DNA of 64,000 nucleotides from assembly GCF_900177765.1 (NCBI RefSeq), contig NZ_FXWI01000005.1:62001-126000 (forward strand). Direction: 5' to 3'. Below are positions 1,880 through 12,304 of this stretch, piece by piece (within the stretch, counting starts at the first letter, position 1; each line of letters opens with the position of its first letter). Origin of the DNA: Agreia sp. VKM Ac-1783 (GTDB lineage: Bacteria; Actinomycetota; Actinomycetes; Actinomycetales; Microbacteriaceae). A program made the translations under genes and the position numbers. The notes under the pieces were generated by a model. It saw nothing but the letters and a program-made list of their open reading frames with translations, had not been told where the DNA came from and did not search any database.

Positions 1880-1953
1880 CTTCAACTCAGGAAAAGCCGT
1901 ATAGCGGCGTGCGAAACCGCCTATTTGGGGCGGTTTTTCCTGAATTGGAACGG
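1880..1953. repeat. 75-bp palindromic intergenic repeat, copy A
   Basis: First of eight copies of an interspersed element in this window. Its ends CAGGAAAAGCCG and CGGTTTTTCCTG can pair over 12 bp (one G-T), around a ~35-nt centre containing GCGTGCGAAACCGCC. It lies between the end of the ten-gene minus-strand operon's last gene and the hsp20 promoter, where it could also act as a transcriptional barrier. Confidence 0.8.
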
Positions 1954-1967
1954 AGCCGGTGGACCGG

Positions 1968-3323
1968 TCAGCGGGCCGAGCACCAGTTGGGGTCGCGGCC
2001 GTCGACCGTGCCGAGAGTCGTGCCGTTCGAGAGATCGACGTAGGTGATCTGCTCGGCACTCGTCGTGACCGCGGCGTAGAGACCGTTGGGTGCGACGCAG
2101 ACGCCCGTGATGGATTGGCCGGCGGGCTCGAGGGAGTCGAGGGAGTACAGAATCTTGCTGTCGGCGGCTTCGAGCCTGGCCACGGCCGTATCGGGGCCAC
2201 TGCCCGAGTCTTGGATATCGAGGGTGGTGCCCGCGGCATCCACGATCGCGGAGTCGGCGGCGTCGGGGTCGCCGGCGACAGAAGGGAACGAGCTGCTGGG
2301 ATGGTCCGCCTGACCGAAATCCGTCGCCGTGCGTGTGCCGCCCGTCGCCGTGATCAACGTCTTGGTCGTGGGAACGAAACCGACCAGTGAGTCCGCGCTC
2401 CCGATCGGCACCGGTCCAGACGTGCCATCGCGTTCGCCGAGAGTGTCGACCAGCAGCAGGTCCGAGCCCTCTGTCTGCGCGACCAACGAGGTGGTGCCGG
2501 GGATGAGCGTCCAATCTTTGGCCGTCAGTACCTCGAAATCGGTGCCCGTGATGGGTATCGAGTAGTCGTTGCCCCGCGTGATGTCGTAGACGTAGAGCTG
2601 GTCGGGCTGCGCCTCGTAGTGCGGGGACGGCTGTGGCGTGAACGTGTAGCCGAAGAGCTTGCTCGTCGGGTCGGCCTTGAGGCTTGTGATGGTGCCGGAG
2701 CCCGCGAGGTTCACGACGATGGGCGCACCGCCCGTGAGCGGCACGATGGTGAGAGCGTCGGTTCCATCGTCGTTCACGGTGTCGACGACCAGGGTGTCGC
2801 CGAGCGCCACGAACTGCCGGATGCGCGCGGCTTGGTAGACCGGTTTCGGTGTGCCCCCGCCGATGGGTGCGGCCAGAACAGCGTCGCTGAACTGTTCTCC
2901 GTCTTTTGACGGTGACAGGAAGTAGGTCGTCGGATTCGCCGTGGTGAAGGAGTAACCGAGGGTCGACGCGCCTCCACCCGCGACGCTGCGAACCTCGGGC
3001 ACAGAGACGGTGTAGCGGGTGTTGTAGCTGAGGATTCCGGTGAACTGCACGTCGATGGTGTCGCCGTCGACGGTTGCGGTGGCCGCCGCTGCCGGGCTGA
3101 CCGTGAGCTTGCCCGCAGCCGAGGGGTCGAGCGGCTCGTTCGCCTGCAGAAGCAGGCGCTGGCCCGAGCGTTCGACCGCGGTGTTCACGTTGATCTGTGC
3201 GGACTGCAGCTGTGGCCCGTGCGAGAAGTTGGCGCCGACCAGAACGGCAGCCACGACCGACACGATCGTGATGCTGCCGTAGAGCAGTCGACGGAACCTG
3301 CGGGCCGCGCTATCAGTAGACAT
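1968..3323 (-). CDS. secreted or membrane-anchored Ig-like/beta-propeller protein
   Basis: A 451-residue exported protein of unknown function, last gene of the long minus-strand operon. An N-terminal basic stretch (RRFRRLLYG) and one hydrophobic segment at about residues 14-32 act as a signal anchor. Residues ~40-130 look like a bacterial Ig-like (SbsA/Big_5-type) domain (NEPLDPSAAGKLTVSP ... YNTRYTVSVPEV). The rest has repeating beta-blade-like segments rich in G, D and T, suggesting a WD40-like or lactonase-type propeller. Its start overlaps the end of the TIGR03943 gene by 11 bp, implying coupled translation. From context it may be an extracytoplasmic accessory of the neighbouring permease pair; that is inference. 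Confidence 0.7.
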   Translation of the reverse strand: MSTDSAARRFRRLLYGSITIVSVVAAVLVGANFSHGPQLQSAQINVNTAVERSGQRLLLQANEPLDPSAAGKLTVSPAAAATATVDGDTIDVQFTGILSYNTRYTVSVPEVRSVAGGGASTLGYSFTTANPTTYFLSPSKDGEQFSDAVLAAPIGGGTPKPVYQAARIRQFVALGDTLVVDTVNDDGTDALTIVPLTGGAPIVVNLAGSGTITSLKADPTSKLFGYTFTPQPSPHYEAQPDQLYVYDITRGNDYSIPITGTDFEVLTAKDWTLIPGTTSLVAQTEGSDLLLVDTLGERDGTSGPVPIGSADSLVGFVPTTKTLITATGGTRTATDFGQADHPSSSFPSVAGDPDAADSAIVDAAGTTLDIQDSGSGPDTAVARLEAADSKILYSLDSLEPAGQSITGVCVAPNGLYAAVTTSAEQITYVDLSNGTTLGTVDGRDPNWCSAR

Positions 3324-4137
3324 AGGGCTCGGCAGGTTGATCGACGGCGGTGAGGCTGTCGGGGCGGACGACGGTGGTGGCTGCGCTGAGCACGCTGGGG
3401 TTCGGCTCGAACGCGCCCGTGACCGTCACCCAGCTGTCTGTGGGGTAGCTGCTCGACCAGCCTGGCGAATAGACCGGAACCCCGACGGGCTGCGCGTCGA
3501 CCGCGCAGCAGGTCACCACGAAGCGGGCGACGTAGAAGACGTTGTCGGGATCGTCGGCGTCGGGGGTCACGAACCCCGTGAGGGTGGCGGTTCGGCCGCT
3601 CAGATCGTCGGCGCTCGCGCCCTGGCGAATGAGCGCGGCCCAGTCTTTGACCGAATACGCCGAGGTGTCGTCCGACGTTCCCGGGGGCGGTCCGGCGTTC
3701 GCGAGGGTGTTCGATGAGCCGTTGAGGCTGCGCTGTTCGACCGCCGCCGACGTGAGCGAACTCGGGGGCACGACGAGCAGGGCGACGGCCGCGGCGGCGA
3801 CGATGACGACGGCGGTGAGCGATCCGCCGAACGCGAGCAGCGGACGGCGGCGACCGGCGCCGGCGACGTCGCGGGCGTTGGGCCTGCGCCCATCCGGCCC
3901 ATTGAACCCGGCGTGCTCGTGATCGTGCTCGTCGTCTTCGCCCGGCCCCGGAATGACGAGGAGCGCACCGATCGTGAGCACGAACGCGATGCCGGCCATG
4001 ATCAGGGTGAACACGTAGTAGCGCGGGTTGATGTAGAGGCCGAGCTGGCCGGTGACGCCGAGCCAGACCGTGGCGATCGCAGCGAGCAGTGTCAGAGCCA
4101 GACCTTTCCAGCGCGTGACGAGACGACTAAAAAACAA
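3313..4137 (-). CDS. TIGR03943 (DUF1980) family putative permease subunit
   Basis: A 274-residue membrane protein that is the known partner of DUF318 permeases; in other bacteria the pair is linked with COG0523 (CobW) proteins and zinc homeostasis. Two N-terminal membrane segments (about 10-30 and 38-60) precede a charged His/Asp-rich loop (EDDEHDHEHAG) that could bind metal. A third segment at ~100-122 leads to an extracytoplasmic domain carrying the family motif VVTCCAVDAQPVGVPV with a Cys pair. The start overlaps the permease gene by 11 bp. Substrate unknown; metal-related export or uptake is the family-based guess. Confidence 0.85.
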   Translation of the reverse strand: MFFSRLVTRWKGLALTLLAAIATVWLGVTGQLGLYINPRYYVFTLIMAGIAFVLTIGALLVIPGPGEDDEHDHEHAGFNGPDGRRPNARDVAGAGRRRPLLAFGGSLTAVVIVAAAAVALLVVPPSSLTSAAVEQRSLNGSSNTLANAGPPPGTSDDTSAYSVKDWAALIRQGASADDLSGRTATLTGFVTPDADDPDNVFYVARFVVTCCAVDAQPVGVPVYSPGWSSSYPTDSWVTVTGAFEPNPSVLSAATTVVRPDSLTAVDQPAEPYVY

Positions 4138-5068
4138 GGTTCACCGCCAATCCGATGGCCGCCGCGCAGACGGCGATGAGCACGCTCACCTGCACCAGAG
4201 TGCGCACGGTGAAGGTGGTGCGCATCAGGGCGAGCATCTTGATGTCGATCATGGGTCCGAAGATGAGGAAGGCGACGATGCCGCCGGGCAGGAAGGTCGA
4301 GCCGAACGAGAGGATGAAGAACGCGTCGACGTTCGAGCAGATGGCGACGATGAAGGCGAGCGCCATGAGTGCGAGCACAGACCACAGGGGGTTGCTGCCC
4401 AGCGTGATCAGCAGGTTGCGCGACACGGCCACCTGGATGAGTCCCGCGACGCCCGCGCCCACGATCAGAGCGGGCATCATGGCGGCGGATTCGCGTCCGA
4501 AACTGATAAGAGTGCGGCGCGTTCGAGTGCCGTGCTCGGCGTGCGGATCGACGGCGCAGGCCGCCTGAAAGCCGCGCGTGAGCAGCGTCTGCGGAGCCGG
4601 GTGGGCGCTGTAGATGAAGCCGACGAGGTTCGCGATGAGCAGGCCGCCGACGATGCGGCTGATGAGGATGCCGTCGGTCCAGCCGAACGCTTGATAGGTC
4701 GTGACGATCGTGATCGGGTTGATGATCGGCGCCGCGAAGAGAAAGGCCATGGAGTCGGCGACGCTGAGGCCACTGACGATGAGCCCTCGGGTCAGGGGCA
4801 CATTGCCGCATTCGCAGACCGGCAGCAGAACGCCGAGCAGAGAGATGAGGCTGCGCCGCAGCACGGGATTTCGGGGCAGTCTCCTCAAAAGAAAGCCCGC
4901 CGGCAGCCAGATCTGCACGATGGCCGAGAGCAGTATTCCGAGGATCACGAACGGAAGCGACTCGATGATGACGCTCACCGACAGAGTCACGAAGTCCTTC
5001 GCCGGATCCGTCATCCACGACGTCCACTCGGCCGGCGCCAACAGCCTGATCGCCACGAGAAGCAGCAC
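4127..5068 (-). CDS. DUF318/ArsP-type permease
   Basis: Polytopic membrane protein of the DUF318 (YraQ/ArsP) family, at least 313 residues with eight or so hydrophobic segments. The family motif with a Cys pair is visible (LLPVCECGNVPLTRGLI). ArsP members export organoarsenicals; members paired with TIGR03943 proteins are tied to zinc. The GTG at 5068 sits inside the first predicted membrane helix and has no Shine-Dalgarno sequence. The frame stays open upstream to a TGA near 5190. The only well-placed start signal there is AGCGAGGAG followed six bases later by CTG at 5155, which would add 29 residues (LSTTPAAHPSLRELTR...). The true start is therefore uncertain and may be non-canonical. Confidence 0.85.
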   Translation of the reverse strand: MLLLVAIRLLAPAEWTSWMTDPAKDFVTLSVSVIIESLPFVILGILLSAIVQIWLPAGFLLRRLPRNPVLRRSLISLLGVLLPVCECGNVPLTRGLIVSGLSVADSMAFLFAAPIINPITIVTTYQAFGWTDGILISRIVGGLLIANLVGFIYSAHPAPQTLLTRGFQAACAVDPHAEHGTRTRRTLISFGRESAAMMPALIVGAGVAGLIQVAVSRNLLITLGSNPLWSVLALMALAFIVAICSNVDAFFILSFGSTFLPGGIVAFLIFGPMIDIKMLALMRTTFTVRTLVQVSVLIAVCAAAIGLAVNLVF

Positions 5069-5238
5069 CGCGGCGATGCCGATCGTGGGCGTCCAGCGCC
5101 ACTCCGACCGGGTCAGTTCGCGCAGTGAGGGGTGCGCCGCGGGTGTCGTGCTCAGCGTTCGCTCCTCGCTCTGTCGACCGTCGTTCCGGCTACCCCATCA
5201 TGGTGCGCTCATGCCGTGCGGTAGCTGGGCGTGACTGC

Positions 5239-6231
5239 TCACACGCTGACGCTGGGTCCGATCGCCCTGTCGCGTTGCTTCTCCTGTCTGCGCAGCAGGT
5301 GGGTCAGAGCCGTGAGATGAGGGAATTCGATGAGCATGCCCAGGATGATCGCCGCGTAGACGACGGGCTGATCAGGCAGGGCGACGGTCGTGACGGCGAG
5401 CATCAGCGGCGCGTTACGAGCGGAGGTCGTCATGGTCAGCAGCGCCTTGGACGGATATCCGAGATGGAACAGGCGCGCGACTCCCTCGCCGATCACGAAG
5501 ACGACGACGAAGAAGAGGAAGACGACCAGCAGCACCCGCGCGAACGAAGCCGGGTCGGCAAGGATCGTTCCGACGTTGCCGGCGAACAACCCGAGGATCA
5601 CCACGGCGATCACGAGGGGAACCAGCCTGTCGGCCGCCTCGACGATGCGCTCCCGCAACGACGAGTCGAGGAACAGACGCATCAGCAGCCGCGCTCCCAG
5701 CGCGAGTCCTGCCGGCACGGCGAACCACGTGACGAGCGTCGGCGCGATCTCGACAGGCGAGCTCCCCACCTGCTGGCCGCCGAAGAGGCCGAGCCAGACG
5801 GGATAGAGCACCAGCTGCAGCGTCATCTGAATCGGGATGAGCGCCGCCCCCGTCGTCGTGTCGCCGCCGGCCATCCGGGTGAAGCCGAGGAACCAGTCGG
5901 TGCAGGGGAACAGGCAGTAGATCAGCACTCCCAGTCGCAGCGCCTGCTCGGGCAGCAGGAGCGAGGTCAGACAGAACGCGACCAGCGGAACCAGGGCGAA
6001 GTTGAAGGCCAGTGCGAGCAGCACCGTTCGAGGCGCACGCTTCAGCGCGGCGAGGCCGTCGAGCCGCAGCGTGAACACGAGCAGCCCGACCAGCACCATG
6101 ATCGACGGATCCACCATCGATGCGACAGCGGTGCCCGCCGCGGGAGCGAGTGCGCCCGTGAGGCTGCCGATGAGGATGGCGGCGACGAAGAGCGCGGTCA
6201 CCGCCCAGGGGCGAGGTGTTGCGGTCAGCAC
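5239..6231 (-). CDS. ACR3-like transporter (bile acid:sodium symporter/arsenite efflux superfamily)
   Basis: A 330-residue, ten-segment membrane protein resembling ACR3 arsenite exporters. The key motif CLFPCTDWFLGFTRMAGGDT (near residues 100-120) matches the ACR3 helix-4 PCT motif with its essential cysteine, and IPIQMTLQLVLYP resembles a later ACR3 motif. The GTG at 6231 (another at 6237) overlaps the stop of the upstream flavoprotein, indicating translational coupling. No arsR or arsC is nearby. The surrounding genes point to metal-chelate handling, so the natural substrate may be an organic metallophore or metalloid species rather than arsenite. That functional shift is inference. Confidence 0.8.
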   Translation of the reverse strand: MLTATPRPWAVTALFVAAILIGSLTGALAPAAGTAVASMVDPSIMVLVGLLVFTLRLDGLAALKRAPRTVLLALAFNFALVPLVAFCLTSLLLPEQALRLGVLIYCLFPCTDWFLGFTRMAGGDTTTGAALIPIQMTLQLVLYPVWLGLFGGQQVGSSPVEIAPTLVTWFAVPAGLALGARLLMRLFLDSSLRERIVEAADRLVPLVIAVVILGLFAGNVGTILADPASFARVLLVVFLFFVVVFVIGEGVARLFHLGYPSKALLTMTTSARNAPLMLAVTTVALPDQPVVYAAIILGMLIEFPHLTALTHLLRRQEKQRDRAIGPSVSV

Positions 6232-7361
6232 GCGCACTCCACTCCACAGCACGACAGGTCGTCGGTGAGCATGCCCGCGGTGCGCCATTCTTCGAGGCCG
6301 CTGCAGTCCTTGCCCTGCGCTTCGCCGATCACACGAGCGACGTGGGCGAAGCGCTGTCTGAACTTGTAGATGAAGCAGAACTTGAGCGCGCCGTGCCGCA
6401 TTGCCGGACCGGACAGGAAGAGTCCGGGGGTGATGGTGGACTGGTCGTCGTCGTCGAGTTCGGGCCACCCGTCGCGGCGCAGCGTGAACAGCTCGGACAC
6501 CGGGCCCAGACCCGGGCCGAAGCCGGTAGCGGCGATCGGTCGAGAGTCGGCCCGGATGCGCGTGCCGTTGTCGAGGCTCACGACCCATTCGGCGCCGTCG
6601 CGTTTGATGCTGCTCGCGTGAGCGGCGGTCAGCGTCAGCCGGCCGGTCGCTGTGGCGCCGTCGAGTCGCATCCGTGAACGCGGAGCGAGGCGGAACGACG
6701 GATCGGAGCCCGAGCCGGCATCCCAGGGGCTCCCGGCATCCACGACCGTGACCTGCGCGCCGTGCTCGATGTGATGGCAGGCGATGTCGATGCCTGATTC
6801 GTAGCCGCCGATCACGATCACCCGGCCCGAGCGCGGCTCCCAGGCCTCGGGGGTGGCGGAGTGATCGGAGAGGCCGGCTCCGGCAAGACGCACGTCGGGG
6901 CGATCGGAGAACTCGCCGCCGGCCCACACGACGGTGCGCGCAGACACCGGTCCGCGCGAGGTCGCCACCGTGAACCCGTCGCCGACAGCCTCCACCGCGG
7001 TCACCTCGGTATCCGACAGCACCGGCACCTCAAAGTGCTTCACCACGCTGCGCAGATACTTCGCGTACTGCGGCCCGGTGAGGTAGTCGGCGCCCAGGCT
7101 GAAGGCGGGCGACGTGCGCGGGTGCACCGCGTTGAGGTCGGTCGCGCCGAACCCGTTGCCCGTGAACGAGGGAGTGAGAAAGGTCTGCTTCGTTGGCCAG
7201 TTCAGAAACGTCTGACCGATCTGACCGCGATCGACCACGCCGATCAGGAGGTCGTCGACCGCCGAGAGGGCAAGCGCCGTGCCGATTCCGGCCGGGCCGG
7301 CGCCGATGACGAGCGCGTCGAGGGCCTTGGCTGTGGGAGCCATGTCGCGTCGGGAGCTCAT
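6225..7361 (-). CDS. NAD(P)/FAD-dependent oxidoreductase with cysteine-rich tail
   Basis: A 378-residue flavoprotein of the flavin-monooxygenase/CzcO/Pyr_redox_3 type. The FAD motif GAGPAG is at residues 20-25, and a second dinucleotide site appears as VIVIGGYESGIDIA. The C-terminus is unusual: it ends CCGVECAC, with Cys371, 372, 376 and 378, a likely metal or metalloid ligand or redox relay. The ATG at 7361 overlaps the methyltransferase stop (ATGA). It resembles the flavoproteins found next to ACR3-like carriers in some actinobacteria (ArsO-like); activity on a metallophore or metalloid is inference. Confidence 0.85.
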   Translation of the reverse strand: MSSRRDMAPTAKALDALVIGAGPAGIGTALALSAVDDLLIGVVDRGQIGQTFLNWPTKQTFLTPSFTGNGFGATDLNAVHPRTSPAFSLGADYLTGPQYAKYLRSVVKHFEVPVLSDTEVTAVEAVGDGFTVATSRGPVSARTVVWAGGEFSDRPDVRLAGAGLSDHSATPEAWEPRSGRVIVIGGYESGIDIACHHIEHGAQVTVVDAGSPWDAGSGSDPSFRLAPRSRMRLDGATATGRLTLTAAHASSIKRDGAEWVVSLDNGTRIRADSRPIAATGFGPGLGPVSELFTLRRDGWPELDDDDQSTITPGLFLSGPAMRHGALKFCFIYKFRQRFAHVARVIGEAQGKDCSGLEEWRTAGMLTDDLSCCGVECAC

Positions 7362-8145
7362 TGCGCGAGGACCCCGTAGACCACGTGATCGTCGAGGTAC
7401 TGCCAGACCGTTCCCGTCTCGGCGAATCCGGCGCTGGCGAGGCTCTCGAGGTGGAAGCCGAGCGTGACCTTCGGCGGCGCCTCGTGCAACTCTGCTCCCC
7501 AGACCTCCGACCGCCGCGCCAGGGCCTCTGCGTAGCGGGGCTCGTCGGCGACGGCCTGCCACCACTCATCCCAGGTGTCGGTGTCGCCGGCGAACGTCGT
7601 CTGCTGCATCGCCGCGTCGTCGGCGAGGGCGACGCGAGCCAGCGTGCTCTCGTGCCGGGCGCTGTACGACAGGTGGTCGCCGTTCAGCACGATGCCGCCC
7701 GGGCGCATCAGATCGGGCAGAGCCCGGTAGACATCGGCGAGGGTTCCGGGCTGCAGCCAGTGCAGCGCGGTCGACGAGACCACGGCGTCGAACGGCGCGG
7801 CCGCGATGGCCGGATGCGTCGCCCAGTGTGGGTGCGCGAGGTCGACTTCGGCGGTCTGCAGGCGAGCATCGCCGGCGGCCAGGTCGGCGGCGATGGCCAG
7901 AAGTGCCGGATCTTTGTCGGTGACGACCGCGCGACCGTTCGGAACGTGGCCGAGAACGTGCAGAGCCAACGAGCCCGTGCCCCCGGCGAGGTCGAGGATG
8001 CGCGGCTCGGCGACGTCGGAGCACACAGCGGCGACGACGCGGGCGATGGTGTCGAAGCGCTCGGCGCGGTGTCGGATGTAGCCGGTCTGCTGGGCGTCCC
8101 AGCGGGCCGCGAGGGAGCGTGCGGTGTCGAGGGTGGCGAGGTCTG

Positions 8146-8149
<4 letters not shown>
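7358..8149 (-). CDS. class I SAM-dependent methyltransferase
   Basis: A 263-residue Rossmann methyltransferase. Motif I is DLAGGTG at residues 53-59; an acidic residue ending strand 2 (VVTDKDP) and motif IV (FDAVVSSTALHW) follow. It carries a single cysteine (Cys43), so it lacks the cysteine set used by ArsM arsenite methyltransferases. The start overlaps the ABC ATPase stop as ATGA, and its own stop overlaps the next start. It probably methylates a small molecule made or imported by this operon. The acceptor is unknown. Confidence 0.85.
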
Positions 8150-8936
<787 letters not shown>

Positions 8937-8940
<4 letters not shown>

Positions 8941-9938
8941 GGCAGAGTCGAGAGTAGCTCGCGCAGGTGCTGCGGTCCAGCGATCGAGAGCATGCTCGGC
9001 GGGTCGGTGTAGGGGAACTGCAGCGCAACGACCCGTCCCTTTTGCACCGCCGACAGGGCGGAGACTCCGGGTGCGCTCATGAAGCTGTCGATCACGTCTT
9101 TCGGCTCGCCGCTCGAGTAGAGCAGCACGATGGTCGCCGGGTCACGCGAGATGATGTCCTCGATATTGGCGTCGAAGACCCGCTCTGTGGAGTCGGCGTA
9201 GACGTTGGTGAGCCCTGCCGCGGTGAACACCGGCGTGACCATGCTCGGGCCGCCGTAGGGCGAGAGCACGCTTCCTCCGGATGAGACGTAGAGGGCGGCG
9301 GCGGTGCCGGCATCCGGAGCATTCGAACCGAGGTTTGCCGAACCCTGCTCGACGACCTGCTCGGCCTTGTCGCTCTCACCGAGGAGGGTGCCGAGGGTGC
9401 GCACCTCGCTCCAGACACGACCGAAGGTCGCGGGCTTGCTCAGCTCTGGGCCGGGGTTGGCGCAGTAGGCGCTGGGCGTGTAGACGGCGATTCCGGCGGC
9501 GGCCAGGGCGGCTCGGTCGACCGCGTTCTCGGGCGCGATCACGAGATCGGGCTGGGCGCCGAGGATGCTCTCTTGCGACACGATCGACCCGCCGGTCGCG
9601 TTCTTCTCGGTCGAGAGCAGGTCGAGCGAAGCGAGGGTCGTGTAGGTGGAGTCTTCGTAGAGCCCCGGCTGCACAGCCGAGGTGAGGGCGACCACGCGGT
9701 CGACCGCGTCGAGCGCCTCGAGGTTGGGCAGGGAGTCGTTGTTCACGAGCACGATGCGCTTCGCTGGCGCCTTCAGAGTGACCTCCGACCCGCAGTTCTC
9801 GATGGTGATGGGTGCGTCGGCGGCACTCGTTGTGGAGACGCTGCTCGCCGTCGTGCTCACGCAGGCGCTCACGGCCGCGAGGGTAAGCGCGGCGATGGTG
9901 AGGGCCGCCGGCAGTCGCCGGAGGAGGGGTGTATTCAT
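8937..9938 (-). CDS. FecB/BtuF-type substrate-binding lipoprotein
   Basis: A 333-residue periplasmic-binding-like lipoprotein. The signal peptide ends in a lipobox with lipidated Cys26 (VSAC). The mature protein has the two-lobed PF01497 layout: APAKRIVLVNNDSLPNLEAL at the first lobe and ILGAQPDLVIAPEN before the linking helix. It lacks the His-rich loop of ZnuA proteins, so the ligand is more likely a chelate (zincophore, siderophore or corrinoid) than free zinc. It follows the permease after 19 bp and overlaps the ATPase. Confidence 0.9.
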
Positions 9939-9957
9939 CGGGTTCTTTCTAGATGGG

Positions 9958-11055
9958 TTACGGGGTGTGTGCTGACGAGGAGGGGGTGCGGAGCAAGAGG
10001 AGCAGAAAGGGGGCGCCGATGATTCCGGTGATCACGCCCACGGGAATCTCCTGGGGAGCGAATGCGGTTCTCGCCACGGTGTCGGCGGCGACAAGCAGGA
10101 TGGCGCCGAGAAGCGCAGAGATCGGCAGCACGACGCGGTGGCGGCCGCCCGCCAGTCGGCGCGCGAGATGGGGCACGACCAGGCCGATGAACCCCACGCC
10201 TCCGACCGCGGCGACGGTGACGCCGACCATCGCCGAGACGCCGACCATCACAGCGATGCGGGTGCGCTCGGGATCGATTCCCGCCGAGCGGGCGGAGTCG
10301 TCACCCGAGGCCAGCGCGTCGATCATCGGCGCGATCGCGATCAGGATGCCGATGCCGACGGCCGCGGTGACGGCTGCGGCCGCGAGGGCGGCCGGCTGCA
10401 CGGCGGCGAGCGAACCGAGCAGCCAGAAGAGCACCGAGCGCGCCGCCTCGGGAGAGTCGCTCGAGAATACGAGAAAGCTGGTGGCGGCGTTGAGCGCGTA
10501 GCCGACGGCGAGGCCGGCCAGCACCAGGCGCAGCGGACCGCGCCGGTTGGCTACGCCGGCCAGCATCAGAACGAGAAGCACGGCGCCGATGGCACCGGCG
10601 AGGGCCGCGCCGGAGAACAGCAGGGCACTTCCGCCGCCGATCACCAGAACGACGAGGGCGACACCGGTGGATGCGCCGGAGTTGAGTCCGAGCAGGTAGG
10701 GGTCGGCGAGGCTGTTGCGCACGAGCGCCTGCAGCACTGCTCCCGACACAGCGAGAACTGCACCGGCGACCAGGGCCATCGCCACACGCGGCAGCCGGGT
10801 CGCCCACACGATCTGCTGGGCGGAATCCGACCAGTCGCCGTGACCGGTCGAGAAGAGTCCGTCGCCGATGATGCCGACGACGCTCGCCGGGGCTATCGGC
10901 ACGGGGCCGATGCTGACCGCGACCAAGGCCGCAATGGTCGCTGCGCTCGCCAGGGCAGCGATCATCGCGGCGCCGCGTCGTCGACCACGTCTGATCGACG
11001 AGACGACCTGGCGCTGGGCGAGGCTCGTCATCCGTGAGGGGCTTTCGCTTCTCAC
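9958..11055 (-). CDS. FecCD-type ABC transporter permease
   Basis: A 365-residue inner-membrane permease with about ten hydrophobic segments. FecCD hallmarks include [36 protein letters not shown] and [15 protein letters not shown] (the ATPase-coupling region). The GTG at 11055 overlaps the rpmJ stop as GTGA, which I take as the start. An ATG at 11031 in the same frame is possible but has no Shine-Dalgarno sequence. It forms the importer together with the ATPase and lipoprotein downstream. Confidence 0.92.
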
Positions 11056-11174
11056 CCCTGGCGGGCTTTGAAGCGCGGGTTGAGCTTGTTGATCACGAAG
11101 ACACGACCGCGCCGTCTGACGACCTGCGAGCCGGGCATCTTCTTCATCGACTTGATCGAATTGCGGACCTTCAC
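11052..11174 (-). CDS. rpmJ: ribosomal protein bL36, zinc-independent form
   Basis: A 40-residue protein that begins [15 protein letters not shown] and ends [12 protein letters not shown]. Canonical bL36 binds zinc through three Cys and one His; here there are no cysteines at all, so this is the C-minus paralog made under zinc shortage to free zinc from ribosomes. GGAGG stands five bases before the GTG at 11174; an in-frame ATG at 11186 overlaps that Shine-Dalgarno sequence and is less likely. It is the first gene of a ten-gene run and lies just downstream of the proposed Zur box. Confidence 0.95.
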
Positions 11175-11186
11175 AGCCACCTCCAT

Positions 11187-11216
11187 TTGTTATTGAGAAC
11201 GATTCTCACATACAGT
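11187..11216 (+). promoter_or_regulatory. probable promoter of the CobW-like gene, leaderless
   Basis: TTGTTA (11187-11192) and TACAGT (11211-11216) are 18 bp apart, and the ATG at 11225 begins 8 bases after the -10 box. Transcription would therefore start at or next to the ATG, giving a leaderless mRNA; no Shine-Dalgarno sequence is present. The Zur-like palindrome fills the spacer, so bound repressor would block polymerase. The match is partial and the divergent rpmJ promoter could not be placed with confidence. Confidence 0.4.
11194..11208. promoter_or_regulatory. putative Zur box between rpmJ and the CobW-like gene
   Basis: TGAGAACGATTCTCA is a palindrome with 6-bp arms around a 3-bp centre. 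It closely follows the actinobacterial Zur operator reported as TGAAAATGATTTTCA. It lies in the 50-bp gap between divergent rpmJ and COG0523-type genes, both classic Zur targets, so Zur is preferred over the related Fur-family regulators. One site could control both directions. Confidence 0.8.
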
Positions 11217-11224
11217 AACTCACT

Positions 11225-12304
11225 ATGAATGAGTCCTCCGACCGCCGACCGATCACCCGTATCGCTGGCCTCGCCGTCACGCTCGTCTCGTCGAGCGATC
11301 GGCTCCGGGCCGAGCGGGTCGCCGCCATCCTCAGCGGCTGTACCGTCTCGGAGTCTCCGGCCGAGCTCGATGTCGGAGGCGACGACGACTCCACGTTCGC
11401 CGTCGAGCTCGCCGAGCAACTCGCATCCGACTACGACGACGGCCTCACGGGCAACACCGTGGTGGTGCTGGAGTCGAGCGCCGACATCGTCGAGATCGCG
11501 CTGGTGCTCGAGCACATGCTCGAGAGTCGTCGACCGCGCGTGCCCGTAGGCATTCGCGACGTGGTGGCGGTGACCTCGGTGCGCGAGGTGGGGCAGCAGC
11601 TCCTCGGCTGGGCCGCAGGAAAGTCTGCGCCGGCAGACGACTTCACCTCGCCGGGGCGGTTGGCCTCGCGCCTGGAGTTCGCCAGCATGATCGTGCTGAC
11701 CGATGCGCCCAACGGGGCTGCCGCCGACGACACGCGGCTCGTCCTGGCGCTTCTCGAACGGCTGGCGCCATCGGCTCTTATGCTGACGCCCTTAGACGTG
11801 GCGCACGCGCGGCAGTTGTCAGGGCTGCTGGTGCGCGGACGCGCTCGCCGACTCGGAGCGTCGATGGGCTGGCAGCGGGAGCTCGCGGAGGGTGCGCCCG
11901 CGCATCCGGTGTCTGCGTGTTCGACGTTCGTGTTCCGCGATCCGCGACCGTTTCATCCGGGTCGGTTGCACGCCGCCGTCACGCTGCGGCTGACCCCCGA
12001 GAACGTCGGATGCATCGCGCGCTCGCGAGGGTTCGTTCGGCTGGCGACGCGCGGCGGCCGGGTCGGGTCGTGGGCGACCGCGGGCAATGTGCTCGACCTC
12101 GAGCCGACCGAGATGCTGAGCTGGAGTGCGGACTCGCCGATCGGGCAGGAGATCGTGTTCTTCGGTCCAGGTCTCGACGAGACTGCCCTCGAAGCGGTGT
12201 TGTCGGAGTGCCTGCTGACGACCGAGGAGTTGGCGGCGGGGCCCGAGGAGTGGGCTCGCTACCCTGACCCGTTCCCTGAGTGGATGGTCGAGCACCACCA
12301 CTGA
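11225..12304 (+). CDS. CobW C-terminal-domain protein lacking the GTPase P-loop
   Basis: A 359-residue member or offshoot of COG0523. The second half carries a recognisable CobW C-terminal domain (FHPGRLHAAVTLRLTP ... GFVRLATRGGRVGSWATAG). The first half keeps the spacing of a CobW G-domain (LAVTLVSSSDRLRAERVAAIL), but there is no Walker A GxxxxGK(S/T), no CxCC metal motif and no NKxD, so GTP binding as known is unlikely. It ends HHH, a possible metal ligand. It sits divergent from rpmJ over the Zur box. A role in zinc allocation is inferred from context; the mechanism must differ from that of zinc-transferring GTPases. Confidence 0.75.
   Translation: MNESSDRRPITRIAGLAVTLVSSSDRLRAERVAAILSGCTVSESPAELDVGGDDDSTFAVELAEQLASDYDDGLTGNTVVVLESSADIVEIALVLEHMLESRRPRVPVGIRDVVAVTSVREVGQQLLGWAAGKSAPADDFTSPGRLASRLEFASMIVLTDAPNGAAADDTRLVLALLERLAPSALMLTPLDVAHARQLSGLLVRGRARRLGASMGWQRELAEGAPAHPVSACSTFVFRDPRPFHPGRLHAAVTLRLTPENVGCIARSRGFVRLATRGGRVGSWATAGNVLDLEPTEMLSWSADSPIGQEIVFFGPGLDETALEAVLSECLLTTEELAAGPEEWARYPDPFPEWMVEHHH

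What the first reader, a model, noticed from the sequence alone, without database searches (positions are those of the whole stretch)
1968..11208. Ten-gene putative zinc-starvation operon led by zinc-free bL36
The Zur-like palindrome at 11194 precedes a run of ten same-strand genes, mostly with overlapping ends: rpmJ without cysteines, FecCD permease, binding lipoprotein, ATPase, methyltransferase, Cys-tailed flavoprotein, ACR3-like carrier, DUF318 permease, TIGR03943 protein and a secreted Ig/propeller protein. Known Zur regulons contain the first, the ABC importer and the DUF318/TIGR03943 pair separately. Here they are joined to a methyltransferase-flavoprotein-ACR3 module, suggesting uptake, modification and export of a metal-binding small molecule (a recycled zincophore or similar). 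I know of no described pathway with this set, though I could not search.
Basis: partly seen in the sequence, partly recalled or inferred. Interest (0 to 1): 0.82.

Follow-up and report, generated by a model that had tools for sequence, protein, structure and literature searches.

The report
Zinc-starvation operon built from modules
In the bacterium Agreia, one zinc-sensing switch appears to control ten genes that spare, fetch and handle scarce zinc, including an uncharacterised cysteine-tailed flavoprotein and its partner membrane carrier, whose relatives often sit beside zinc-starvation genes in several bacterial phyla.

Summary
Ten same-strand genes (11174 to 1968) follow a perfect Zur-type box at 11194-11208, one of five in the 3.76-Mb Agreia genome; another precedes znu-like ABC genes and a Fur-family gene. 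The box is shared with a divergent COG0523/MRF-like gene that has lost its P-loop.

The grouping needs revising. The operon is a mosaic: (1) zinc-free rpmJ; (2) FecCD importer plus methyltransferase; (3) flavoprotein plus ACR3-like carrier; (4) DUF318-TIGR03943-secreted protein. Two of seven congeners keep the full order, one keeps modules 1+2, three keep box, rpmJ and divergent gene.

Module 2 recurs across actinomycete families behind Zur-type boxes. In one genome the methyltransferase family sits in a CntKLM opine-zincophore operon; CntM and CntL were not found in eight Agreia-genus genomes. Uptake of a zincophore made by others is therefore likely.

Module 3 is the surprise: the flavoprotein ends in CCx2-4CxC (75 of 80 relatives) and adjoins an ACR3-like carrier (31), a FeoB-like permease (32) or neither (17), with Zur boxes in Actinobacteria and Bacilli. 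A solved relative (3d1c) is called only a putative monooxygenase. I infer thiol-based zinc hand-off from carrier to flavoprotein; this is untested.

The parts
11194..11208 (.). Zur-type operator TGAGAATCGTTCTCA shared by both divergent genes
   Evidence: 1 of 5 exact sites in the genome, reversed-pattern control 0; an exact site also lies between rpmJ and the divergent gene in G297-G302, the 6 congeners in which the divergent gene was found
11225..12304 (+). divergent COG0523/MRF-like protein that keeps CobW_C but has no recognisable P-loop domain
   Evidence: ZigA 78.6 and MRF 69 bits, both below cut-offs; PF07683 CobW_C only; sequence
11052..11174 (-). rpmJ type B, zinc-free bL36
   Evidence: NF002021 76.5 bits over cut-off 70; no Cys; the zinc-ribbon type A copy with three Cys is elsewhere in the genome, C3:703319
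9958..11055 (-). FecCD-type ABC permease (start GTG 11055 or ATG 11031)
   Evidence: PF01032 285 bits
8937..9938 (-). substrate-binding lipoprotein
   Evidence: PF01497 64 bits; nearest NCBIfam TIGR03868 115 bits, cut-off 392
8146..8940 (-). ABC ATPase
   Evidence: PF00005 110 bits
7358..8149 (-). class I SAM methyltransferase of the importer module
   Evidence: PF08242/PF13649; homologues inside FecCD importer operons
6225..7361 (-). FAD/NAD(P) flavoprotein with C-terminal SCCGVECAC tail
   Evidence: PF13738 290 bits; 80 relatives; AlphaFold model pLDDT 91.8
5239..6237 (-). ACR3-like BART-fold carrier with invariant PCTDW cysteine
   Evidence: SBF 48 bits; ASBT fold TM 0.78; Cys in 32 of 32
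4127..5155 (-). DUF318/ArsP_1 permease (start uncertain)
   Evidence: PF03773 173 bits
3313..4137 (-). TIGR03943/DUF1980 partner subunit
   Evidence: TIGR03943 157 bits over cut-off 88.8
1968..3323 (-). predicted secreted or anchored protein with one Ig-like Big_5 domain
   Evidence: PF13205 27.3 bits, cut-off 23.6
1914..1936 (-). 8-bp inverted repeat just past the last stop, possible transcript end
   Evidence: read from sequence; no T run; not tested

Best explanation
The cluster is a Zur-repressed zinc-starvation operon that Agreia assembled from units which occur separately elsewhere.
(a) When zinc falls, Zur leaves the single box and both directions are expressed.
(b) bL36 without a zinc site replaces the zinc-ribbon copy and frees zinc; the P-loop-less COG0523-like protein is a ribosome or chaperone helper.
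(c) The FecCD importer takes up a zinc chelate, most likely an opine or nicotianamine-type zincophore that Agreia does not make itself; the methyltransferase acts on that ligand or frees zinc from it.
(d) The ACR3-like carrier moves a thiol-liganded metal through a membrane site that contains its invariant PCTDW cysteine. The flavoprotein, kept reduced by NAD(P)H through FAD, takes zinc on its CCx3CxC tail and passes it on. This resembles the mercury hand-off from MerT to MerA (recalled), but without metal reduction.
(e) The DUF318/TIGR03943 pair is an accessory envelope permease for low zinc.
Shown by sequence: the gene set, the box, recurrence of each module, the conserved cysteines, the partner swap. 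Inferred: (a) in vivo; (b) from known families; (c) the ligand; all of (d); (e). My probabilities: Zur operon 0.9; zincophore-type import 0.65; metal or thiol chemistry by the flavoprotein tail 0.5; direct carrier-to-flavoprotein hand-off 0.3.
For: Zur box; another exact site precedes znu-like ABC genes, a Fur-family gene and bL28, and another precedes a second FecCD importer.
Congener mosaic.
Importer plus methyltransferase: among the best 52 of 94 non-own homologue places, 19 have an importer within 4.5 kb (15 FecCD, 4 Nik/Opp type) and 13 have a box within 1 mismatch (19 control palindromes: mean 0.7, max 10); 5 are exact (controls 0).
Opine link: L158 holds CntK, CntL and CntM homologues, MFS, FecCD importer and this methyltransferase family in one run. 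CntM is found in 1 of 394 class genomes, the one with L158. CntM 0 of 8 and CntL 0 of 8 Agreia-genus genomes.
Flavoprotein: Zur box within 2.7 kb upstream in 17 of 31 (exact) or 24 of 31 (1 mismatch) actinobacterial loci; 19 control palindromes: mean 0.16 and 0.37, max 3 and 5. Bacillus-type Zur box (recalled consensus) in 6 of 11 Bacilli, 30 controls all 0.
Partner within 1.2 kb: ACR3-like 31, FeoB-like 32, none 17 of 80.
Tail: 75 of 80.
Published zinc-limitation expression data for probable relatives: PMC5480029 and PMC7174638 (passages).
Against: No expression data exist for Agreia here. No Zur box within 1 mismatch lies in the 19-kb stretches around the DUF318 block of G297 and G302, where it stands alone, so the distal three genes may not be Zur genes by ancestry; and in B. 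anthracis the authors infer that Zur activates, not represses, the ArsP_1 permease (PMC6336718, passage). Of the 52 methyltransferase places, 33 show no importer nearby and 39 no box (a few stretches are cut by contig ends), so the family also has other jobs; in L162 and L193 it follows ribosomal-protein genes instead. 38 of 80 flavoprotein loci show no COG0523 gene in the held stretch and 17 have neither transporter; 7 of 31 actinobacterial loci have no box within 2.7 kb, two of them the Agreia loci whose box lies further up. The gamma-type box was found in 0 of 2 Pseudoalteromonas loci. The tail is poorly placed in the model (pLDDT about 57), so contact with FAD is unknown. L158 has no Zur box within 1 mismatch and two with 2 mismatches, one of them 32 bp before its binding-protein gene, none before its first gene. 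The Agreia permease is no closer to L158's (43-45%) than to others (up to 51%).
Confidence: 0.6

Rival explanations
1. One reading: a zincophore is imported, then modified by methyltransferase and flavoprotein, then exported by the ACR3-like carrier for reuse.
For: All genes lie in one run with 4-bp overlaps from binding protein to flavoprotein; the methyltransferase family and a FecCD importer occur in an opine-zincophore operon with an MFS transporter.
Against: Flavoprotein and ACR3-like carrier pair up without this methyltransferase in 29 of the 31 ACR3-linked loci, apart from one weak hit in L044; elsewhere FeoB-like permeases take the carrier's place; CntM and CntL not found in the genus.
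Confidence: 0.12
2. The flavoprotein is a low-molecular-weight thiol or persulfide disulfide reductase (YpdA-like) that counters thiol stress accompanying zinc loss; it does not carry zinc.
For: After 3d1c, the nearest folds are bacillithiol disulfide reductases 7a76/7apr; best NCBIfam hit is YpdA, 72 bits; the S. aureus gene NWMN_2483 responds to sulfide as well as calprotectin (PMC5480029, passages).
Against: YpdA score is far under its cut-off (340); a CCx2-4CxC tail is nearly universal in the sampled family, and a membrane transporter gene adjoins in 63 of 80 loci.
Confidence: 0.27
3. The distal DUF318-TIGR03943-Ig block is a separate, not Zur-controlled transcript that happens to lie downstream.
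For: 83-bp gap; the block stands alone with no box within 1 mismatch in G297 and G302; B. subtilis ycgRQ is under ECF sigma factors (PMC5584981, passage); for the B. anthracis ArsP_1 permease Zur is inferred to act as activator (PMC6336718, passage).
Against: DUF318/TIGR03943 adjoins the importer-methyltransferase unit in L023, L153 and L156 and a staphylopine-type cluster in Priestia; no terminator-like match in the gap (one of the two matches found lies at 4157-4142, in the end of DUF318, and the total is not above shuffles).
Confidence: 0.3
4. Arsenic handling: ACR3-like carrier, ArsP-type permease, methyltransferase and flavin enzyme form an organoarsenical resistance set.
For: Family names only: acr3 50 bits, ArsP_1 173 bits, ArsO 40 bits.
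Against: acr3 and ArsO models score far below their cut-offs; only the generic ArsP_1 passes; boxes and many neighbours are zinc-linked. Neighbouring arsR or arsC genes were not searched for.
Confidence: 0.03
5. The importer carries cobalamin, F420 precursor or an iron siderophore, not a zincophore.
For: Best NCBIfam names are F420-0, BtuC and Fec/Fhu types.
Against: All score below their cut-offs; Zur-type boxes lie in front; one homologous importer-methyltransferase unit is within an opine-zincophore operon.
Confidence: 0.15

Closest known systems
Mycobacterium smegmatis Zur cluster MSMEG_6045-6071 (PMC7174638, passages)
   Same: Zur-controlled block with ABC transporters, a class I SAM methyltransferase (MSMEG_6055, 498-fold up in the zur mutant, 28-fold with TPEN), COG0523/MRF and alternative ribosomal proteins
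   Different: Homology of MSMEG_6055 to the Agreia methyltransferase was not tested here; the passages read name no flavoprotein-carrier pair
Opine-type zincophore gene clusters (CntKLM; PMC7438024, passages and its section 8)
   Same: Actinomycete clusters with only a FecCD importer also encode an extra predicted methyltransferase (PF13649 in cluster 1); L158 shows the Agreia methyltransferase family in such a cluster
   Different: CntM and CntL were not found in Agreia-genus genomes (0 of 8 each)
Corynebacterium glutamicum cg0794/cg0795 (PMC2823685, passages and section 7)
   Same: Zur-controlled COG0523 GTPase divergent from an oxidoreductase
   Different: Whether cg0795 is this flavoprotein was not tested
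S. aureus NWMN_2481-2483 (SA2368-SA2370; PMC5480029, passages) and PDB 3d1c
   Same: COG0523 GTPase operon with an FAD disulfide oxidoreductase induced 152-fold by calprotectin; 3d1c is a full-length family member with the same tail
   Different: That SA2370 is the protein in 3d1c was not tested; I found no assigned function for either
MerA/MerT mercury hand-off (recalled)
   Same: Flavoprotein with a C-terminal Cys pair served by a Cys-bearing membrane carrier
   Different: Zinc cannot be reduced; different transporter families
B. subtilis ycgRQ / streptococcal ScfAB (PMC5584981, passages)
   Same: ScfA-type membrane protein with a linked partner; that these are DUF318 and TIGR03943 is recalled
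   Different: Sigma-factor control reported there; a Zur box reported before the B. anthracis ArsP_1 permease (PMC6336718, passages)

Membership tests
Zur regulon (actinobacterial) | Palindromic Zur box close to the promoter of the first gene | tested here: met
   Box 19 bp before rpmJ and 16 bp before the divergent gene; 5 exact sites per genome, control 0
Zur regulon (actinobacterial) | Zur binding and zinc-dependent repression | not testable with these tools
   No expression or binding data for Agreia
Type B (zinc-free) bL36 | Score over NF002021 cut-off and no zinc-ribbon cysteines | tested here: met
   76.5 against 70 bits, 0 Cys; a type A paralogue with 3 Cys exists
ACR3 arsenite efflux family (TIGR00832) | Curated score | tested here: not met
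   49.8 against 282.8 bits
ACR3 arsenite efflux family (TIGR00832) | BART fold and a conserved transmembrane Cys (the ACR3 Cys is recalled) | tested here: met
   ASBT fold TM 0.78; PCTDW Cys in 32 of 32; supports works-like only, since the score test failed
YpdA/Bdr bacillithiol disulfide reductase (TIGR04018) | Curated score | tested here: not met
   72.5 against 339.9 bits; fold related, TM 0.65-0.71
F420-0 ABC importer (TIGR03868/69/73) | Curated scores | tested here: not met
   115, 257 and 227 bits against 392, 437 and 372
TIGR03943 with DUF318 permease | TIGR03943 over cut-off next to a PF03773 permease | tested here: met
   157 against 88.8 bits; neighbours overlap by 11 bp
Opine zincophore biosynthesis cluster | CntL and CntM present | tested here: not met
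   0 of 8 Agreia-genus genomes for PF10100 and for NF033601
COG0523 / MRF GTPase (divergent gene) | P-loop GTPase domain | tested here: not met
   Only CobW_C matched; scores under MRF and ZigA cut-offs
Flavoprotein family of 3d1c | Full-length similarity and C-terminal CCx3CxC | tested here: met
   phmmer E 5.5e-58 over 17-378, tail aligned

The most novel reading that the evidence does not exclude
The flavoprotein and its carrier are an undescribed, cross-phylum zinc-delivery pair. A membrane protein with a buried cysteine (ACR3-like in Actinobacteria) or a FeoB-like gate brings the metal in, and a NAD(P)H-dependent flavoprotein takes it on an exposed CCx3CxC tail for COG0523 chaperones. In Agreia this pair is wired to an orphan importer and methyltransferase that scavenges zinc chelates made by neighbours, possibly plant nicotianamine.
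Probability: 0.25. Interest if true: 0.85.

Novelty: new variant of a known kind. Interest (0 to 1): 0.62.

Why it matters
Zur regulons are well mapped for uptake and ribosomal proteins, but this flavoprotein, Zur-linked in Actinobacteria and Bacilli and with relatives beside zinc-linked genes in a cyanobacterium, a haloarchaeon and proteobacteria, has no function that my searches could find, although a relative's crystal structure exists. Its near-universal cysteine tail and its two interchangeable transporter partners make a specific, testable proposal for how starved cells move zinc from membrane to protein. Separately, a zincophore-type importer with a methyltransferase in bacteria in which CntL and CntM were not found suggests use of chelates made by other microbes or by plants, which would matter for microbial communities.

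Tried and rejected
Rejected: the 'methyltransferase-flavoprotein-ACR3 module' as one unit. Rejected: 'no relatives'. The order and class searches with the flavoprotein gave only the own genome (1 of 297 and 1 of 394), which wrongly suggested extreme rarity.

Considered and not supported: arsenic resistance, F420, cobalamin (scores below cut-offs). An internal promoter or terminator: 0 promoter-like and 2 terminator-like matches, not above shuffles; the 83-bp gap folds no better than shuffles. A gamma-type Zur box: 0 of 2 loci. A general TGATAATNATTATCA box in the 49 loci L056-L104: 7 of 49, control mean 0.13, max 3, weak. The Bacillus-type and gamma-type consensus patterns are recalled.

The flavoprotein tree is the quick one, the careful search having run out of time; it needs 3 partner changes, at least 2 forced by starred branches, but Tritonibacter (L093) has a long branch.

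Literature searches whose listings showed no description of the flavoprotein's function or of its FeoB-like/ACR3-like pairing: (0 papers), open-access library only; of the papers listed I looked at passages in some and not at the rest, so I cannot exclude a description. PMC13339975 (S. aureus ZigA) was checked by passages and does not use the words oxidoreductase, FAD or flavin in its main text. All papers cited were seen as passages, except that section 7 of PMC2823685 and section 8 of PMC7438024 were read whole.

Full report
WHAT IS THERE. The window lies in a genome of the genus Agreia (contig C1:62001-126000). Ten minus-strand frames run from 11174 to 1968: rpmJ, permease, binding lipoprotein, ATPase, methyltransferase, flavoprotein, carrier, DUF318 permease, TIGR03943 protein and an Ig-like protein. 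Seven of nine junctions overlap with the starts used (six if the permease starts at 11031); the gaps are 19 bp and 83 bp. Promoter- and terminator-like patterns inside do not exceed shuffles (0 and 2 found). An 8-bp inverted repeat lies at 1936-1914, just past the last stop.

THE BOX. TGAGAATCGTTCTCA at 11194-11208 is one of five exact TGANAANNNTTNTCA sites in 3.76 Mb (reversed-pattern control 0; 0.23 expected by composition). Of the other four, one lies at the head of an ABC gene run: a first frame in which NCBIfam recognised nothing, an ATPase and an AztB/ZnuB-like permease (98 bits, below cut-off), followed by a Fur-family gene and bL28, i.e. a znu-zur-rpmB-like locus. One precedes a second FecCD importer related to the window's (permease 43%, ATPase 40%, binding protein 27%). 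One lies beside an ABC ATPase frame and about 2 kb from aztC and aztD. The fourth is near a phospholipase C gene and may be unrelated. The window box sits 19 bp from rpmJ and 16 bp from a divergent gene with a CobW_C domain but no P-loop domain detected. The rpmJ protein has no cysteine; the zinc-ribbon paralogue, with three cysteines, is elsewhere.

THE OPERON IS A MOSAIC. Among the seven other same-genus genomes held, G298 and G299 have all ten genes in the same order; G300 has box, rpmJ, permease, binding protein, ATPase and methyltransferase; G297, G301 and G302 have box, rpmJ and divergent gene without the importer unit or flavoprotein next to them; G303 gave no hit for the divergent gene or the flavoprotein. 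In G300 and G301, 36% FecCD permease hits lie on the far side of the divergent gene, not followed up. G297 and G302 carry DUF318-TIGR03943-Ig at a separate place with no box within one mismatch in the 19 kb around it. This defines four modules.

MODULE 2, IMPORTER AND METHYLTRANSFERASE. Methyltransferase homologues (E up to 1e-15) occur in 71 of 394 class genomes, the own one included. I examined the best 52 of 94 non-own places: 15 have a FecCD and 4 a Nik/Opp-type importer within 4.5 kb; 13 have a Zur-type box within one mismatch and 6 kb (19 control palindromes over the whole stretches: mean 0.7, max 10) and 5 an exact one (controls 0); 9 of the 13 have an importer. In seven loci the order is binding protein, methyltransferase, permease, ATPase, with a box within about 0.5 kb of the binding-protein start: exact in L151, L154 and L155, one mismatch in L152, L153, L156 and L157. 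DUF318 and TIGR03943 adjoin the unit in L153, L156 and in Nonomuraea gerenzanensis (L023). In L162 and L193 the methyltransferase instead follows alternative ribosomal-protein genes. In L158 one strand reads CntK (174 bits), CntL (241), CntM (483; PF10100 652), MFS, binding protein, permease, ATPase, methyltransferase; the three Cnt scores are below NCBIfam's equivalog cut-offs, but PF10100 is far over its own. CntM occurs in 1 of 394 class genomes, the one that holds L158, and in 0 of 8 Agreia-genus genomes; CntL in 0 of 8. A published survey found that actinomycete opine clusters with only a FecCD importer also encode an extra methyltransferase (PMC7438024, passages and section 8). A zincophore-type substrate that Agreia does not itself make is therefore the best reading; plant nicotianamine is an attractive but untested candidate.

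MODULE 3, FLAVOPROTEIN AND CARRIER. The C-terminus is exactly CCx2-4CxC in 75 of 80; the other five keep three or four cysteines in a variant spacing. Another cysteine, C329, is invariant in the 44 aligned sequences of A3; a pattern for the motif around it hits 73 of 80. A transporter gene lies within 1.2 kb in 63 of 80: ACR3-like in 31 and FeoB-like in 32; 17 have neither. Three FeoB-like proteins scanned have Gate and FeoB_N domains. Partner identity changes at least twice on the quick tree: FeoB-like inside the ACR3 half (L049) and ACR3-like in the other half (L093, long branch). Zur-type boxes lie within 2.7 kb upstream in 17 of 31 actinobacterial loci exactly and in 24 of 31 within one mismatch (19 controls: mean 0.16 and 0.37, max 3 and 5); in the two Agreia loci of that set the box is further upstream, before rpmJ (same genomes). 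Bacillus-type boxes occur in 6 of 11 Bacilli within one mismatch (30 controls 0). COG0523 homologues lie in 42 of 80 held stretches, 37 within 3 kb. Plasmid records show relatives beside zigA, folE2, dksA, cysS, hisI, uS14 or bL33 genes in Klebsiella, Haloferax, Paracoccus, Paenibacillus and Acaryochloris, each with a part of that list. The AlphaFold model (pLDDT 91.8; tail about 57) matches 3d1c, an S. aureus entry called a putative monooxygenase, at TM 0.87, then the YpdA/Bdr reductases at 0.65-0.71; 3d1c ends in the same tail. The carrier model (pLDDT 90.9) has the ASBT/BART fold (TM 0.78) and an invariant PCTDW cysteine (32 of 32).

EXPRESSION EVIDENCE FROM PRINT. In S. aureus a COG0523 GTPase, a hypothetical gene and an FAD pyridine-nucleotide disulfide oxidoreductase, neighbours by locus tag, rise 43-, 83- and 152-fold with calprotectin (PMC5480029, passages); that the last is the 3d1c protein is likely but not tested. 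In M. smegmatis a Zur-controlled class I methyltransferase rises 498-fold in the zur mutant (PMC7174638, passages); homology not tested. C. glutamicum Zur controls a divergent COG0523/oxidoreductase pair (PMC2823685, passages and section 7). B. anthracis Zur binds before an ArsP_1 permease, with positive regulation inferred by the authors (PMC6336718, passages). The S. coelicolor SCO0472-0476 targets (PMC4726154 and PMC6103462, passages) may match module 2, also untested.

MECHANISM. Zinc sparing by bL36 and chelate uptake follow from known families. The new proposal, a thiol relay from the carrier's membrane cysteine to the flavoprotein's tail with FAD/NAD(P)H keeping it reduced, rests on conserved cysteines, gene pairing and zinc context only. 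The main rival is a YpdA-like disulfide reductase without metal transfer.

VERDICT. The operon as a whole is a new variant of known Zur-controlled gene sets; the flavoprotein-carrier pair is the part that deserves experiments.

Noticed in passing
L157:11277-12320 (-): One open frame of 347 aa carries a methyltransferase domain (25-175) and a full ribosomal L31 domain (267-345), beside uS14, bL28, rpmJ, a ZigA-like gene and the importer-methyltransferase unit: apparently a methyltransferase-bL31 fusion.
   Followed up: partly
window 11225-12304: COG0523/MRF-like protein without a detected P-loop domain yet kept at 56-92% identity beside the Zur box in 6 of 7 congeners. Whether the congeners' copies also lack the P-loop was not checked.
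   Followed up: partly
L015:9703-12698: A second FecCD importer in the same genome with its own exact Zur-type box; no methyltransferase hit in the 19-kb stretch.
   Followed up: partly
L014:9095: An exact Zur-type palindrome near a phosphocholine phospholipase C gene; possibly unrelated to zinc.
   Followed up: no
L177: Streptomyces sp. NBC_01201: the methyltransferase homologue adjoins a Nik/Opp-type (SBP_bac_5) importer, the class used for staphylopine (staphylopine link from PMC6711530 and PMC7438024 passages).
   Followed up: no
L176: Streptomyces sp. NBC_01717: methyltransferase homologue in a cluster with two ATP-grasp enzymes, MFS, aminotransferase and isochorismatase.
   Followed up: no
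L221: Priestia sp. J2 plasmid: staphylopine-type cluster flanked by type B L31, S14 and a TIGR03943/permease pair.
   Followed up: no
L171:11102-11968 and L172:6544-8339: Weak (36%) FecCD permease hits on the far side of the divergent COG0523-like gene in two congeners; possibly another importer at the same box.
   Followed up: no
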